NCBI RefSeq assembly: GCF_014218355.1
Contig: NZ_AP023368.1
Span: 872,001-936,000 of the forward strand
Direction of reading: 5' to 3'
DNA length: 64,000 bases
From: Anaerocolumna chitinilytica
GTDB lineage: Bacteria > Bacillota > Clostridia > Lachnospirales > Lachnospiraceae
A program made the translations under genes and the position numbers. Each line of letters starts with the position of its first letter. Position 1 is the stretch's first letter. The notes beneath the pieces are model-generated. The model worked only from the letters and a program-made list of their open reading frames with translations. It was not told where the DNA came from and did no database searches. Positions 53,212-59,041 of the stretch are shown piece after piece.

Positions 53212-53270
53212 GATAGAAATTGGGGAATAAGGGTATTATATCCATAAACATAAGAACAGGAGGCTATGTG

Positions 53271-54602
53271 ATGCCAAAAGGGAAGAGGAAACTGGTAAAA
53301 TGTATTGTTTGCGGAGAAATCTTTGATTCGGAGCTGGATATTTGTCCGGTTTGTGGTGTAGGAAGGGATTATTTTATCCCGTATGATGAGGAAGATGTAA
53401 GTTTCAAAAAGGATACAAGCGAGACCTTTGTTATTCTTGGTAATGGTGCAGCAGGCGTCAGTGCAGCCGAAGCAATACGAGAGCGGAACGGAACCTGTTC
53501 TATCATAATGATATCAAAGGAAGGAGAACTTAGTTATAATCGGCCTATGCTGACCAAAAGTTTAAGTTCCCTTATTTCAGCACAGGAAATCCTAATTCAT
53601 CAGCCTGATTGGTATGAGGAAAACAATATAACAAATATACTGAATGCCGAAATTGTAAAGCTTGATATAGAAAATAAAACTGTCTGTTTAAAAGACGGCA
53701 GAGATATTGCTTTTGATAAATGTATTTATGCTCTAGGTGCAGAAAGCTTTGTCCCCCCGATGAAAGGGAGTGACAAGCCGGAAGTAATCGCTATCCGTAA
53801 TATGGAAGATGTTAAGAGAGCCAGTGAAATTGGCAGAACTGCTAAAAGAGCTGTTGTAATAGGCGGTGGAGTCCTTGGCCTTGAAGCTGCATGGGAGTTA
53901 AGTAAATTATGTACTGTGACTGTTCTGGAGGTTGCAGACAAGCTAATGGTAAGGCAGTTGGATGATAAAGCAAGCGAAGTACTTGGGAAGCTGATTCAAA
54001 AGGCAGGCATTGAATTCCGGGTAAATGCTTCTATCAGCGAGATTACAGGAGAGGATAAAGTAACAGGCGTAATGTTGCAGAACGGTGAGATCTTTGAAGC
54101 TGATCTTGTTATTATATCCTGTGGTATCCGAGCAAACACAGACATAGCAAAAGTATGCGGAATTCCTGTCAATCGGGCGATAGTGGTGAATGAGAAAATG
54201 GAAACCGGTGTGGAAGGTATCTATGCTTGTGGTGATTGTGCAGAATATGGCGGTGTTAATTACGCTGTGTGGTCTCAGGCTGTCCAGATGGGCAAAACAG
54301 CAGGCTGCAATGCAGCCGGCGAGGAGACAGAGTATGAGTTAAATCCCCCCGCACTAACCTTTGAAGGTATGAGGACAGCTCTCTTTGCAGGCGGAGATAA
54401 TGGTAAAAATGCAGAGCTTGATTACCAAATGCTTGAGTATATTGACAAAGAAGAGATGAATTATGAGAAATATTATTTTATAGATAATAAACTGGTAGGG
54501 GCCATATTAATAGGGGATACAAGGAAGATGGTTAAATTAACAGAAGGACTGAATGTGGGATGTTCTATTAATTATATCAGAAATAATATCATCCATTCAT
54601 AA
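53271..54602 (+). CDS. NAD(P)H-dependent FAD oxidoreductase with N-terminal rubredoxin-like domain
   Basis: A 443-residue flavoprotein. Residues 1-40 form a rubredoxin-like metal site (CIVC and CPVC). A pyridine-nucleotide-disulfide-type oxidoreductase follows: FAD loop VILGNGAAGVSAAEAIRE, NAD loop AVVIGGGVLGLEAAWELSKL and FAD-binding GIYACGDCAEY. This fits the NADH:rubredoxin oxidoreductase and high-molecular-weight rubredoxin group that handles oxygen and peroxide in anaerobes. There is no redox-active CxxxxC pair typical of thiol reductases. The ATG at 53271 follows ACAGGAGG. It lies alone, before the first Csp-like protease. Confidence 0.9.
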   Translation: MPKGKRKLVKCIVCGEIFDSELDICPVCGVGRDYFIPYDEEDVSFKKDTSETFVILGNGAAGVSAAEAIRERNGTCSIIMISKEGELSYNRPMLTKSLSSLISAQEILIHQPDWYEENNITNILNAEIVKLDIENKTVCLKDGRDIAFDKCIYALGAESFVPPMKGSDKPEVIAIRNMEDVKRASEIGRTAKRAVVIGGGVLGLEAAWELSKLCTVTVLEVADKLMVRQLDDKASEVLGKLIQKAGIEFRVNASISEITGEDKVTGVMLQNGEIFEADLVIISCGIRANTDIAKVCGIPVNRAIVVNEKMETGVEGIYACGDCAEYGGVNYAVWSQAVQMGKTAGCNAAGEETEYELNPPALTFEGMRTALFAGGDNGKNAELDYQMLEYIDKEEMNYEKYYFIDNKLVGAILIGDTRKMVKLTEGLNVGCSINYIRNNIIHS

Positions 54603-54659
54603 GTCATACTTTCTGATAGCAGTCATATAGATAATTAACCACTTTTTTTGGTAGACATT

Positions 54660-56363
54660 ATGAATGAGGCTGACAGATACAAGATTACCAGTGAAGATTA
54701 TGCTGATATTATATTGGATAATTGGAATGACCCTGAGGTAATGCAGAAATTTGCCAATGATGTTGTAAATAAAATCAATGACAATATTGCATTTGCTTAT
54801 ATACCGATTGATAGGGTTCCGTTAAGCAGTTTTAATCAATTTGGTTATTATTCCATTCCCGGCTGTTTCGGACTATTAGGTTCGGATAATGGCAACGAAG
54901 CAGCTGCTAATCCTATGCCGTATAATCTGGAAGAGAGCAGCGGAAAAGGGGTATTAATCGGATTTGTTGATACTGGAATAGATTACCGGCACCCGGCTTT
55001 TCGGAAAAGCGATAATACAACTAAGATTATTTCTATATGGGATCAGAATATAAAAAGTCTGGAGAGGTATCCGGATGGACTTTATTATGGAACGGAATAT
55101 AACAGTGAGGAGATTAATTTTGCATTGCAAAAGGAAGATCCTCTTTCTGTTATTCCTAGTACAGACGATATCGGTCACGGTACTATGATGGCCGGGATAG
55201 CCTGTGGCACCCGTAATGATGAAAATAATTTTAGAGGTATTGCACCGGAGGCAGAACTAGTTATTGTCAAACTTAAACCAGCAAAGCAATACTTGAAAGA
55301 AATCTTATTAATACCCGACGGGATTCCATGTTACCAGGAAAATGATATCATGGCAGGGGTTGAATATCTGAATCGTATTGCGGCAAAGCATAACAAACCT
55401 ATTGTTATATGCTTAGGCGTTGGTAATAACATTGTGGACCATGCGGGCCTTCGTATCGGCAGCAAATTCTATGCAAGAATCGGCGAAAAGCCGGGGTGTG
55501 TGTTTTTGGCGGCAGCCGGAAATGAAGCCAACCGTCAAAATCATTATTACGGCAATATTACAGGTAATTCTATTTCAGATTTTGTAGAGCTGCAGATAGC
55601 GAAAGAAGATCCGGGGTTTATGATTCAATTCTGGGGAGTCTCTCCTAATTTCTTTTGGATTGATATTTATTTGCCATCGGGAGAGTTCTTGGTACGTATT
55701 CCACCCATTGACGGGCAGACCACTATAAGGCAGTATGATAAGATGTTAGTAATAGCAGACAGTATCGTTGGGATACCATCTTTTCATAATCAGTCGATAA
55801 TTTTTAGGGTTTATAAGCCGGTGGAAGGAAATTGGACCTTTATGGTGTTTGGTTCCATGGGGGATTTACCGAGAGAATTCCATTTATGGCTTACAATGCA
55901 TAATTATCTCCATGAAGGTACTTATTTTTTGAAACCAAATATCTATACAACAATAGTAGGTCCTGGAAATAATACCGGAATTATAACTGTTTCCTGTTAT
56001 AATACAAGTACGGGAGAGCTTAATGATTACTCCAGCAGAGGATTTAATGTGGATGAGATGCCGAAGCCGGATATAGCGGCACCGGGCGTTAATATACCTG
56101 CCCCCTTCTTGAATAATTCCTATGTATCAGCCAGCGGAAGCAGTATTGCAGCAGCCTTTACCGCCGGTGTTTCCGCTCATGTATTACAATGGGGAATTGT
56201 AGAAGGCAGAGCTGATTTCCTAAATACTCCTCATGTAAAACACATATTTCAGTTAAGTGCCCAAAGGCAGAAGGACATGAAATATCCGAATGGAGACTGG
56301 GGTTATGGGATATTGAATCCGTCAGGTATCATTAATACATTAAAGGATTTTATGAATATATAA
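54660..56363 (+). CDS. Csp-like S8 family subtilase with intact catalytic triad
   Basis: A 567-residue subtilisin-family protease without a signal peptide, with the layout of the clostridial germination proteases CspA/B/C that process the spore cortex hydrolase SleC. A pro-region of about 80 residues precedes the catalytic domain. The triad is present: Asp104 in GFVDTGIDYRHP, His173 in GHGTMMAG and Ser495 in SGSSIAAAF, with the oxyanion Asn in AAAGNEAN. A long insertion before the serine (about residues 300-440) is the jelly-roll seen in Csp proteins. The ATG at 54660 has only a weak ribosome site; a TTG at 54648 is possible. It is followed by a hydrolase gene and a mutated paralogue. Confidence 0.9.
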   Translation: MNEADRYKITSEDYADIILDNWNDPEVMQKFANDVVNKINDNIAFAYIPIDRVPLSSFNQFGYYSIPGCFGLLGSDNGNEAAANPMPYNLEESSGKGVLIGFVDTGIDYRHPAFRKSDNTTKIISIWDQNIKSLERYPDGLYYGTEYNSEEINFALQKEDPLSVIPSTDDIGHGTMMAGIACGTRNDENNFRGIAPEAELVIVKLKPAKQYLKEILLIPDGIPCYQENDIMAGVEYLNRIAAKHNKPIVICLGVGNNIVDHAGLRIGSKFYARIGEKPGCVFLAAAGNEANRQNHYYGNITGNSISDFVELQIAKEDPGFMIQFWGVSPNFFWIDIYLPSGEFLVRIPPIDGQTTIRQYDKMLVIADSIVGIPSFHNQSIIFRVYKPVEGNWTFMVFGSMGDLPREFHLWLTMHNYLHEGTYFLKPNIYTTIVGPGNNTGIITVSCYNTSTGELNDYSSRGFNVDEMPKPDIAAPGVNIPAPFLNNSYVSASGSSIAAAFTAGVSAHVLQWGIVEGRADFLNTPHVKHIFQLSAQRQKDMKYPNGDWGYGILNPSGIINTLKDFMNI

Positions 56364-56433
56364 TTTGGTTTGCAGTGGCAAAAATATTTTATTGGAATAT
56401 TCTATTACTAAACTAAAAATAATGGTGCAGTTT

Positions 56434-57243
56434 ATGGAATATTATATTACGGTAGAACCCGGCGTAAGGATATATGTGAATGACATAAATCCTCAGGGGG
56501 ATAAACCCATCCTGTTTATGCATGGGTGGCCTGCAAACCATCATTTATTCGAGTATCAATATGATGAACTGATTCAAAAAGGATATCGTTGTATCGGCAT
56601 GGATGTCAGAGGATTCGGAAAATCTGATAAACCGGTATATGGGTATGATTACGATACCTCAGCAGATGATATCCGCTGCGTAATCGAAACTTTGAAGCTG
56701 TGCAATCTTACACTGCTGGGGCATTCTACCGCAGGGGCTGTAGCAATACGTTATATGGCAAGACATAAAGGATTCGGTGTATCAAAATTGGTTTTATGTG
56801 CAGCAGCAGCTCCCAGTCTTATAGAAAGACCGGATTTCCCTTTTGGTTTGAAAGAGGATGATGTACTTCAGATTATTTATAACACATACCAAGACCGCCC
56901 TCAGATGTTAGCAGACTTTGGTAAGATGTTCTTCTATCAGCCTATAACAGAAGCTTTCTCCAGCTGGTTCCTCTCTCTGGGATTAGAAGCTGCAAGCTGG
57001 GCTACCGCTTATGTGGCATGTGCCTGGTTATATGAAACCTTATTTGATGATATGAAGTGTGTCAATGTACCAACATTAATTATGCACGGAATCCATGATC
57101 AAGTATGTAAATACCCTTTAGGAGTAGCGCAGCATAAAGGAATAAAGGGTTCTAAATTTGTTACCTTTGAAGATAGCGGACATGGGCTCTTTTATGATGA
57201 GAAAGATAAATTTAACTGTGAATTAATGAATTTTGTTGGATAA
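56434..57243 (+). CDS. Alpha/beta hydrolase
   Basis: A 269-residue cytoplasmic hydrolase of the epoxide hydrolase/haloperoxidase-like type. The oxyanion motif HGWPANHHLFEYQ, nucleophile Ser in LLGHSTAGAVAI, acid in HGIHDQVCKY and His in EDSGHGLFYDE make a complete triad. The substrate is unknown. The start is uncertain: ATG at 56434 gives the typical N-terminus (EYYITVEPGVRIYVND) and one at 56422 is close. It lies between an active and a mutated Csp-like protease on the same strand, and 70 bases separate it from the first. A terminator at 57256-57282 follows. Confidence 0.88.
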   Translation: MEYYITVEPGVRIYVNDINPQGDKPILFMHGWPANHHLFEYQYDELIQKGYRCIGMDVRGFGKSDKPVYGYDYDTSADDIRCVIETLKLCNLTLLGHSTAGAVAIRYMARHKGFGVSKLVLCAAAAPSLIERPDFPFGLKEDDVLQIIYNTYQDRPQMLADFGKMFFYQPITEAFSSWFLSLGLEAASWATAYVACAWLYETLFDDMKCVNVPTLIMHGIHDQVCKYPLGVAQHKGIKGSKFVTFEDSGHGLFYDEKDKFNCELMNFVG

Positions 57244-57255
57244 GACCTAGATGAA

Positions 57256-57282
57256 AGAAGGAGGATTGTTCTCCTTCTTTTT
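57256..57282 (+). terminator. Rho-independent terminator of the hydrolase gene
   Basis: AGAAGGAG at 57256-57263 pairs perfectly with CTCCTTCT at 57271-57278, followed by more T residues. Confidence 0.8.
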
Positions 57283-57373
57283 ATTTGCTTAAAAGAGCTT
57301 TCCTGTGTAAGAAGAATAATCAATTTATATATAGCATAGATATAACTAACCATACTAGGATTGTAAAATATTT

Positions 57374-59041
57374 ATGATCGACGAAACACAAAATGCAGTT
57401 ACGGATGAAAGGTATGCTGATTTGATAGTGGATTTGACCAGAACGGACGGGATAGAGCTGGATAATCGGAGTCCTTTCTTACAGAAAATAAATGAACAGT
57501 TTGCAGTGCTTCAAATACCGGTAGAGGAGATTACTCCGGATATTATGCAAAAATATGGATACTCTGCTATGCCTAAGTGTTATGGGATCACTACCTATCG
57601 TAATGAAATAATTGAATACTCTTATATCGTACAAAAATTCGATCTGGAAGATATCAAGGGAAGCGGCATACTAATCGGAATTGTGGATACGGGCATTGAT
57701 TATTTGAACCCCGCATTCATAAATGTGGGAGGCACCACGAAAATAAGAGCTCTTTGGGATCAGACCATAGATAATATCGGCAAAGAACCGGTAGGCTTCT
57801 TATATGGTTCAGAATATACAGCGGAAGACATTAATATCGCGCTTCATGCACAAAATCCCCTGGAAACGCTGCCAAGCAGAGATGATGTTGGAGAAGGGAC
57901 AGCTATGGCTGCCATTGCAGCAGGCAATCAATCGGAATCCTCCGCATTTACAGGGATTGTCGTGAATGCGGAACTGGCAGTTGTGAAACTGAAACCTGCA
58001 AAAAAATACTTAACTGAATTCTATGGCATTCCGGAAAAAGCGATTTGCTATCAGCAAAATGATATTATGATGGGAATTAAGTATCTATTACAAAAAGCGG
58101 AGCAGTTTGGTATGCCCATTATTATAGGTTTGGGGTTAAGCTCTTCCCAGGGAGCCCATGACGGTAAGGACATTATGAGCATATACCTGGAAGAGTGCGG
58201 AAAACGAAACAATGTCGGTATAGCAGTTGCTGTGGGAAATGAAGGAAATCAGGAGTTGCATTATTATGGATTAAAGCAGGCGGATGAAAGTACCAGTATA
58301 GCTGAATTGAATGTCAGTGAAGGCAATCCTAACTTTACCATGGAGTTGTGGACCAATATCCAAAGTACATTAAGTGTTTCCGTTCTATCACCGGAGGGTG
58401 ATACCATTTATAGGTTGGACTCTTCCTTGCCGCCCAGTCGTAATGAAGTAGTTACCTATGAAAATATGAGTTTGTATGTGGACTTGTTTATGAATGAAAC
58501 ATATTCTCAGAAGAAACTGATCGTATTTCGTTTTCAGAATATAAGAGAAGGAGTTTGGCGCTTTCTAATTGAGGAACCAGGAGGTGTAATTTCCTTTTGC
58601 CATATATGGCTTCCCATAAGGAACTTTCTTTCAAATGATACCTACTTTTTAAATTCAAATCAATATACTACCATATCAATACCGGGTAATGCAGATCAGA
58701 TAGTTACAGTGACCTCCTATGATGCAATTACCAGTAACCTTGCACCAAGTGCCGGAAGAGGCTATACCTCTGAAAATAAGCCCAAGCCCGATATTGCCGC
58801 ACCAGGGGTAAATATCGTTGTACCAATACTTGACGGCGGGTTCTATCCGCTGTCCGGGAGCGGATTGGCGGTGGCCTTTACTGCAGGAACTATGGCGGCC
58901 ATTATGGAAGGTGGTACAATAATTAATCCAACACAGGTAGTTAATACACAGTTGCTGAGGCTTATTCTTACCTATCTGGCTAGGAGAAGTACGGATTTAG
59001 AATATCCTAATCCGGACTGGGGATATGGTTATATTGTATAA
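57374..59041 (+). CDS. Csp-like subtilase pseudoprotease (catalytic His and Ser replaced)
   Basis: A 555-residue paralogue of the protease at 54660, with the same pro-region, subtilase and jelly-roll layout. Only Asp105 of the triad remains (GIVDTGIDYLNP). The expected His is Glu174 (DVGEGTAMAA instead of GHGT) and the expected Ser is Gly497 (LSGSGLAVAF instead of SGSS). The frame is intact over its full length, and other conserved parts such as KPDIAAPGVNI and AVGNEGN remain, so it looks maintained rather than decaying. In Clostridioides difficile the pseudoproteases CspC and CspA regulate germination; this protein may act likewise. No strong ribosome site is seen upstream of the ATG. Confidence 0.9.
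   Translation: MIDETQNAVTDERYADLIVDLTRTDGIELDNRSPFLQKINEQFAVLQIPVEEITPDIMQKYGYSAMPKCYGITTYRNEIIEYSYIVQKFDLEDIKGSGILIGIVDTGIDYLNPAFINVGGTTKIRALWDQTIDNIGKEPVGFLYGSEYTAEDINIALHAQNPLETLPSRDDVGEGTAMAAIAAGNQSESSAFTGIVVNAELAVVKLKPAKKYLTEFYGIPEKAICYQQNDIMMGIKYLLQKAEQFGMPIIIGLGLSSSQGAHDGKDIMSIYLEECGKRNNVGIAVAVGNEGNQELHYYGLKQADESTSIAELNVSEGNPNFTMELWTNIQSTLSVSVLSPEGDTIYRLDSSLPPSRNEVVTYENMSLYVDLFMNETYSQKKLIVFRFQNIREGVWRFLIEEPGGVISFCHIWLPIRNFLSNDTYFLNSNQYTTISIPGNADQIVTVTSYDAITSNLAPSAGRGYTSENKPKPDIAAPGVNIVVPILDGGFYPLSGSGLAVAFTAGTMAAIMEGGTIINPTQVVNTQLLRLILTYLARRSTDLEYPNPDWGYGYIV

What the first reader, a model, noticed from the sequence alone, without database searches (positions are those of the whole stretch)
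54660..59041. Adjacent active and catalytically dead Csp-like subtilases flanking a hydrolase
Two paralogous subtilases share layout, but the first keeps Asp104/His173/Ser495 while the second has Glu174 for His and Gly497 for Ser, with a full-length open frame. This parallels the protease/pseudoprotease logic of CspB and CspC in C. difficile germination, but in a different gene arrangement, separated by an alpha/beta hydrolase and without sleC alongside. A maintained dead enzyme suggests a sensing role.
Basis: partly seen in the sequence, partly recalled or inferred. Interest (0 to 1): 0.78.

Follow-up and report, generated by a model that had tools for sequence, protein, structure and literature searches.

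The report
Independently evolved dead spore-germination protease
A bacterium of the Anaerocolumna group (family Lachnospiraceae) keeps a spore-germination-type protease that has lost two of its three catalytic residues but is still under strong selection, so the use of dead proteases known from Clostridioides difficile spores has probably evolved more than once.

Summary
In detail: the first Csp-type subtilase keeps Asp104/His173/Ser495; the second has Asp105/Glu174/Gly497 in a full-length frame. The genome groups with Anaerocolumna (Lachnospiraceae); of its 11 Csp-type genes fetched, 3 lack a triad residue. The dead gene is not decaying. It belongs to one clade of 19 Csps from 10 of 15 genus genomes, all with Glu or Gln for His; close pairs in the clade show dN/dS 0.03-0.12, near active paralogues. 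The clade is not sister to C. difficile CspA/CspC (AU p 1.2e-33). Two papers say Lachnospiraceae Csps have intact triads; these sequences say otherwise, and Ser-to-Gly Csps recur outside the genus (18 of 61 distinct genes). Likely role: non-catalytic regulator of the Csp-SleC germination cascade; sensing is inferred. In passing: sleC is split by a serine-recombinase element here and in at least four related genomes.

The parts
57374..59041 (+). Csp-type pseudoprotease (D105, E174 for His, G497 for Ser), 555 aa
   Evidence: orthologues with E/G in G012 and G014, and E plus an in-frame loss of 23 residues at the Ser loop in G011
54660..56363 (+). Csp-type subtilase with intact D-H-S triad; belongs to another Csp lineage; of the four genomes with this locus only this one has it here
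56434..57243 (+). alpha/beta hydrolase, 90-92% identical in G011, G012 and G014; positional neighbour, probably not part of the system
57253..57281 (+). intrinsic-terminator-like hairpin (13 pairs, 4 of them G-C, T tail) between hydrolase and pseudoprotease
   Evidence: consensus scan; 10 such sites in 5 kb against 3.1 in shuffles
57335..57344 (+). CATAGATATA, a -10-like element of the sigma-E/sigma-K type about 30 bases before the pseudoprotease start (consensus recalled; the stricter sigma-E pattern is absent)
53220..54602 (+). pyridine-nucleotide-disulphide oxidoreductase with rubredoxin-like parts, conserved left neighbour of hydrolase and pseudoprotease in three relatives

Best explanation
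The second gene encodes a soluble Csp-family protein that has given up proteolysis and works by binding. It is made during sporulation, stored in the spore, keeps its prodomain uncleaved because it cannot self-process, and controls (as partner, scaffold or sensor) an active Csp that cuts pro-SleC and so starts cortex breakdown. Shown here: loss of His and Ser, Csp family and fold assignment, purifying selection, one origin of the Glu/Gln state within the genus, independence from CspA/CspC. Inferred: sporulation timing and separate transcription (sequence patterns only), uncleaved prodomain, location, partner and any ligand. The first gene is an ordinary active-type Csp; nothing shows that the two are partners. 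A tandem active/dead pair elsewhere in the same genome (C1:1871185-1872708 intact triad, 1869438-1871072 Ser to Gly) is the better candidate for a protease/pseudoprotease operon.
For: Triad reading. One clade of 19 with E (13) or Q (6) at the His site, support 99, 99 and 100. dN/dS of the six dead pairs with dS under 1: 0.030-0.116; of seven active pairs: 0.033-0.101; neutral rate rejected in each. Clade-specific residues, e.g. Met178 and Asp266 in 19 of 19. CATA -10-like element in the last 90 bases before 16 of 19 dead and 75 of 109 genus Csp genes versus 45 of 217 control genes (pattern chosen after seeing the upstream sequences). Top 11 structure matches are all Csp chains, including the CspC:CspA heterodimer (model mean pLDDT 67, pTM 0.76). 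A SleC-like match in 15 of 15 genus genomes. Precedent: CspA and CspC act in germination without catalysis (PMC6636752 passages; PMC12880746 passages and discussion).
Against: No expression, localisation or phenotype data. C. difficile interface residues are not conserved: the window protein happens to match CspC at D429 and Q516 but not at Y361, R456, G457 or T520, and its orthologues match at none of these, so the known heterodimer cannot be carried over. 14 of 15 genus genomes keep one GerA-type gene and 11 of 15 a GerB-GerC frame, so a soluble sensor is not needed to explain germination. Five of 15 genus genomes lack the His-lost clade in my set (G002 is 99% complete; the others 63-91%). 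The strict sigma-E pattern precedes only 4 of 19 dead genes and not this one; the control genes include genes inside operons, which inflates the enrichment.
Confidence: 0.62

Rival explanations
1. A decaying gene copy: catalysis was lost because the gene is no longer needed, and the frame is open only because the loss is recent.
For: In G011 (a metagenome assembly) the orthologue has lost 23 residues around the Ser loop between two EGG repeats. Damaged Csps do occur in the genus: matches with an internal stop or truncation in G001 and G006.
Against: dN/dS 0.085-0.101 within the orthologue group and 0.030-0.116 across the clade's close pairs; no stop inside any of the 19 matches; only Glu or Gln at the site; the G011 deletion is in frame and the rest is 92% identical to G012 over 494 aligned codons.
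Confidence: 0.04
2. The His-lost clade is not dead as a whole: copies that keep Ser work as a Ser-Glu-Asp type peptidase (as recalled for sedolisins, which also carry Asp at the oxyanion position), and only branches that lost Ser too, such as the window's, are inert.
For: Ser is kept in 12 of 19; Glu stands at the His site in 6 of these 12 and Gln in 6; in 5 of the 6 Gln sequences (one whole branch) the oxyanion Asn is Glu or Asp, an odd match to the recalled sedolisin oxyanion Asp.
Against: Where Glu and Ser coexist the oxyanion residue is still Asn, and where it changed the base is Gln, so no sequence has the full sedolisin set. In sedolisins the acidic pair is arranged differently (recalled). 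The window protein has Gly for Ser and cannot use this chemistry.
Confidence: 0.07
3. The protein is a maintained pseudoprotease but acts outside germination, for example as a protease inhibitor, chaperone or spore structural protein, or in vegetative cells.
For: The Csp copy number (11 in this genome) seems more than one SleC cascade needs; sister genes lie beside glycine-cleavage genes or a SPOR-domain amidase rather than spore genes; no conserved partner gene was seen.
Against: The best solved relatives are all germination Csps; the promoter type before Csp genes fits sporulation sigma factors (with its caveats).
Confidence: 0.25

Closest known systems
C. difficile CspC (pseudoprotease, D105/T170/G485)
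   Same: Csp fold, Asp kept, His and Ser both lost, Gly at the Ser site, full-length maintained protein
   Different: Glu not Thr at the His site; separate branch; NCBIfam CspC model 239.6 bits against a cut-off of 675; no cspBA beside it; interface residues mostly different
C. difficile CspA (pseudoprotease part of CspBA)
   Same: Csp fold, His and Ser both lost; sister members here also use Gln at the His site
   Different: Not fused to an active Csp; Gly not Ala at the Ser site; independent origin
CspB of C. perfringens/C. difficile (active SleC-processing protease)
   Same: Same family and domain order; 4i0w is the best structure match; the first gene has its triad
   Different: The second gene lacks two triad residues; the G338 CspB part falls on a distant branch used here as outgroup
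Ser-to-Gly Csps outside the genus
   Same: Predicted inactive Csps kept as full-length genes, some in tandem with active copies
   Different: His is kept; a 15-member Ser-to-Gly clade and several smaller groups lie apart from the window's clade

Membership tests
Csp subtilase family | S8 subtilase matching solved Csp structures over nearly its whole length | tested here: met
   (top 11 chains all Csp)
Csp subtilase family | Made during sporulation and present in the spore | tested here: inconclusive
   only -10-type enrichment before Csp genes; no expression data
Csp subtilase family | SleC substrate encoded in the same genome | tested here: met
   an intact orthologue in G014 matches the solved pre-pro spore cortex-lytic enzyme at 6.5e-125. 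Here one copy is interrupted, one is not
Active Csp protease (CspB-like) | Asp-His-Ser triad | tested here: not met
   D105/E174/G497
CspC (bile acid germinant receptor, NF040808) | score over the curated cut-off of 675 bits | tested here: not met
   239.6 bits; only 2 of 391 class genomes have a match over the cut-off
CspC/CspA of Peptostreptococcaceae | common descent with those pseudoproteases as one clade | tested here: not met
   AU p 1.2e-33 with 10 of the 19 plus 4 CspA/CspC rows, 34 rows, model without mixture, group named after the tree was seen; trees. The 79-row test did not finish
CspC/CspA of Peptostreptococcaceae | cspBA-cspC gene order | tested here: not met
CspC/CspA of Peptostreptococcaceae | CspC:CspA interface residues | tested here: not met
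   window protein matches at D429 and Q516 only, its orthologues at none of the six columns; the loop is gapped in the alignment
Germinant receptor (by function) | ligand-dependent control of germination | not testable with these tools
   needs genetics or binding assays

The most novel reading that the evidence does not exclude
Soluble pseudoprotease control of spore germination has evolved repeatedly from active Csp proteases in Lachnospiraceae. In Anaerocolumna an old His-lost clade, plus recurrent Ser-to-Gly copies in tandem with active ones, forms a species-specific set of soluble germination sensors, parallel to but unrelated by descent to C. difficile CspA/CspC.
Probability: 0.3. Interest if true: 0.82.

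Novelty: new variant of a known kind. Interest (0 to 1): 0.6.

Why it matters
A 2019 paper says pseudoprotease Csps appear unique to C. difficile and the Peptostreptococcaceae, and a 2026 paper that Lachnospiraceae Csps are all predicted to be active (passages seen). The sequences here contradict that and show several separate changes, some with an intact-triad copy at the same tandem position in related species (Ser in G003 and G005, Gly in G000, G008 and G009; direction of change assumed). That gives a natural series in which to ask what a Csp does once catalysis is gone, and whether dead Csps are germinant sensors in general or a C. difficile speciality.

Tried and rejected
Rejected: one clade with CspA/CspC; decay; a displaced catalytic His or Ser (by alignment); a conserved active/dead pair at this locus and a shared transcript with the hydrolase; absence of Ger-type receptors as an argument for Csp sensing. 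Led nowhere: search of the large protein database (switched off); AU test with 79 rows (unfinished; a 34-row set with the simpler model finished); two older Csp papers not held. The AlphaFold model is weak after residue 430, so the geometry at Gly497 was not interpreted. Dropped rows: two truncated ORFs without a place (the loci overlap genes held in full), domains under 400 aa and contained duplicates (187 found, 185 kept, 180 aligned), L174 (18 stops in the frame named). One search gave 64 ORFs from 32 names, but one search showed that L175 and G468 are one organism, so three rows are repeats: 61 distinct genes from 31 genomes or records; the 244-row tree holds these three repeats. The match list was cut by the tool and counts 12 matches for G000 where I hold 11 Csp-type genes, so genus counts are of the genes fetched.

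Full report
OBSERVATION. The sequence at 54648-59041 is as described. Read from ATG 54660, protein 1 has D104/H173/S495; protein 2 (57374-59041) has D105/E174/G497, codons GAA and GGA. Both are Csp-type subtilases: Pfam S8, NCBIfam CspBA and CspC models as best matches but far under their cut-offs, PDB Csp chains by sequence and, for protein 2, by fold. Between them lies an alpha/beta hydrolase.

GENOME. The window lies in a 5.62-Mb single contig. I hold 11 Csp-type genes of this genome: 8 with D-H-S, one D-H-G, one D-E-S and the window's D-E-G (one search counts 12 matches).

THE DEAD CLADE. I read the catalytic residues in 180 Csp domains, 109 of them from the 15 genus genomes. The His site is neither His nor a gap in 23: CspA of G338, three CspC of G338 and G410, and 19 from the window's genus. 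These 19 come from 10 of 15 genus genomes and form one clade (support 99, 100), with Glu in 13 and Gln in 6. Within it the Ser site is Ser in 12, Cys in 3, Gly in 3 and deleted in 1; the window gene and its orthologues in G012 and G014 are D-E-G, and G011 lacks 23 residues around the Ser loop. Counting S-to-Gly copies too, 14 of 15 genus genomes have at least one Csp lacking a triad residue (G005, 75% complete, has none). The fewest changes at the His site are three on the 180-, 79- and 244-row trees, and 13, 11 and 17 at the Ser site; such counts do not give direction. G338 shows D105, T170, G485, D429 and R456 at the numbers given for C. difficile CspC (paper passages). Forcing ten of the 19 together with four CspA/CspC sequences costs 121 log-likelihood units, p-AU 1.2e-33, 34 rows, simpler model, group chosen after seeing the tree; the 79-row test did not finish.

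SELECTION. Pairwise codon maximum likelihood with a script of my own, pairs with dS under 1: window orthologue group 0.101 and 0.085; D-E-C group 0.030 and 0.033; D-E-S group of G006/G008 0.116; D-Q group 0.099. Seven active pairs: 0.033-0.101. Twice the log-likelihood difference from neutrality was 179 or more in all 21 pairs run. The eight pairs with dS above 1 (all six that involve G000 and two with G007) were not used for the range.

BEYOND THE GENUS. One search read 64 ORFs from other genomes or records; three are repeats of one organism. Of the 61 distinct genes from 31 genomes or records, 41 have D-H-S, 18 D-H-G, one D-H-C and one has no residue at the Ser site; none has lost the His. 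Two of the 18 are from a MAG titled only Clostridiales (L171); the other 16 are from seven genomes of the family search. Earlier rows add three D-H-G in G281 and one in G020, same family. A 15-member D-H-G clade and several smaller groups appear on the tree. These loci are mostly the best matches to the window protein or genomes with many copies, not a random sample.

LOCUS. In G011, G012 and G014 the order is ammonium transporter, PII, DUF975 protein, oxidoreductase, hydrolase, dead Csp, with small extra genes. The first Csp of the finding sits between oxidoreductase and hydrolase only in G000; on the tree it falls in an 11-member intact-triad lineage. The hydrolase is 90-92% identical between G000 and the others, the dead Csp 60-64%. 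A terminator-like hairpin at 57253-57281 lies between hydrolase and dead Csp. Sister branches sit elsewhere. The D-E-S gene of G000 lies between a SPOR-domain amidase and gcvT-gcvH-gcvPA; the D-E-S genes of G006, G007, G008 and G010 precede genes I read by eye as the same glycine-cleavage genes; the D-E-C gene of G011 keeps the amidase but is followed by other genes, and so is the D-Q-S gene of G009. The D-Q genes stand in other surroundings: next to another alpha/beta hydrolase in G006 and near a homologous one in G008, and about 3 kb from a second SleC-like gene in G007. In G008 an intact Csp, a Ser-to-Gly Csp and a D-Q Csp stand in tandem, which resembles the one-active, two-dead set of C. 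difficile in content, not descent.

PROMOTERS. A CATA -10-like element in the last 90 bases precedes 75 of 109 genus Csp genes, 16 of 19 dead ones and 45 of 217 control genes. The stricter sigma-E pattern precedes 36 of 109, 4 of 19 and 9 of 217; the window gene lacks it. The consensus is recalled, the looser pattern was picked after looking at upstream sequences, and the controls are mechanical ORFs that include genes inside operons, so the enrichment is suggestive only.

GERMINATION PARTS. Genus genomes have SleB/CwlJ-type hydrolases in 14 of 15, one GerA-type gene in 14 of 15, and one frame with both GerB- and GerC-type domains in 11 of 15. SleC-like matches occur in 15 of 15; the intact G014 protein matches the solved pre-pro cortex-lytic enzyme 9h68 at 6.5e-125. 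So the Csp route is available, but it is not the only possible germinant route.

MECHANISM AND LIMITS. The best reading is a non-catalytic germination regulator. Shown: dead site, family and fold, selection, origin. Inferred: spore location, timing, partner, ligand. The C. difficile interface residues are not conserved in the orthologue group, so a partner cannot be named.

LITERATURE. Passages of PMC6636752 and outline, passages and discussion of PMC12880746 state that Lachnospiraceae Csps have intact triads or are predicted active. I also saw passages of PMC11878537, PMC6199464, PMC10747680 and PMC7490687. Four text searches (9 of 9 papers listed; 15 of 56; 5 of 5; 4 of 4) showed no title or abstract start that reports dead Csps in this family; the other papers were not opened, the library lacks most subscription papers, the 2017 and 2020 Csp papers are not held and the 2016 one was not tried.

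Noticed in passing
G000:C1:1325419-1326312 and 1369705-1370100 (outside the window; L242, L055): sleC is split after about codon 300 by a 43.4-kb insert that begins with a large serine recombinase. The same codon is interrupted in G008 and G010 (2.6 kb), G006 (3.3 kb) and G004 (5.7 kb, holding a Csp gene; its recombinase seen only in part), with recombinases 46-76% identical; in G002 the N part ends there too but the C part was not found in the DNA fetched. sleC is uninterrupted in G014, G012, G011, G009, G001, G007 and G013, and G006 has a second uninterrupted copy. It looks like a skin-type element in a germination gene. Two text searches (2 of 2 and 10 of 44 papers listed) and passages of one of these papers showed no sleC case; the rest was not opened.
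   Followed up: partly
G000:C1:1869438-1872708 (L056): Tandem intact-triad (D-H-S) and Ser-to-Gly Csp genes; at the same tandem position the second copy is Gly in G008 and G009 but Ser in G003 and G005. Anaeromicropila populeti (L175) has a similar intact/Ser-to-Gly tandem.
   Followed up: partly
G008:C1:4920952-4926489 (L135): Three Csps in a row: intact triad, Ser to Gly, and His to Gln with oxyanion Asn to Asp.
   Followed up: partly
L052 7086-8744 and neighbours; L063, L065, L066, L068: Sister pseudoproteases stand directly before glycine-cleavage genes in G000 and, read by eye, in G006, G007, G008 and G010; glycine is a C. difficile co-germinant (PMC6199464 passage), so the neighbourhood is suggestive but may be chance.
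   Followed up: no
G000:C1:3360688-3362892: GerB-type (Spore_permease) and GerC-type domains are read in one 747-aa open frame next to gerA; frames of 747-762 aa with both domains occur in 11 of 15 genus genomes.
   Followed up: no
L066-type genomes G006-G010, D-Q branch (G006 5470183, G007 C60, G008 4924804, G009 3926716, G010 1564110): All five Csps of one branch have Gln at the His site and Glu or Asp at the oxyanion Asn while keeping Ser; unexplained.
   Followed up: no
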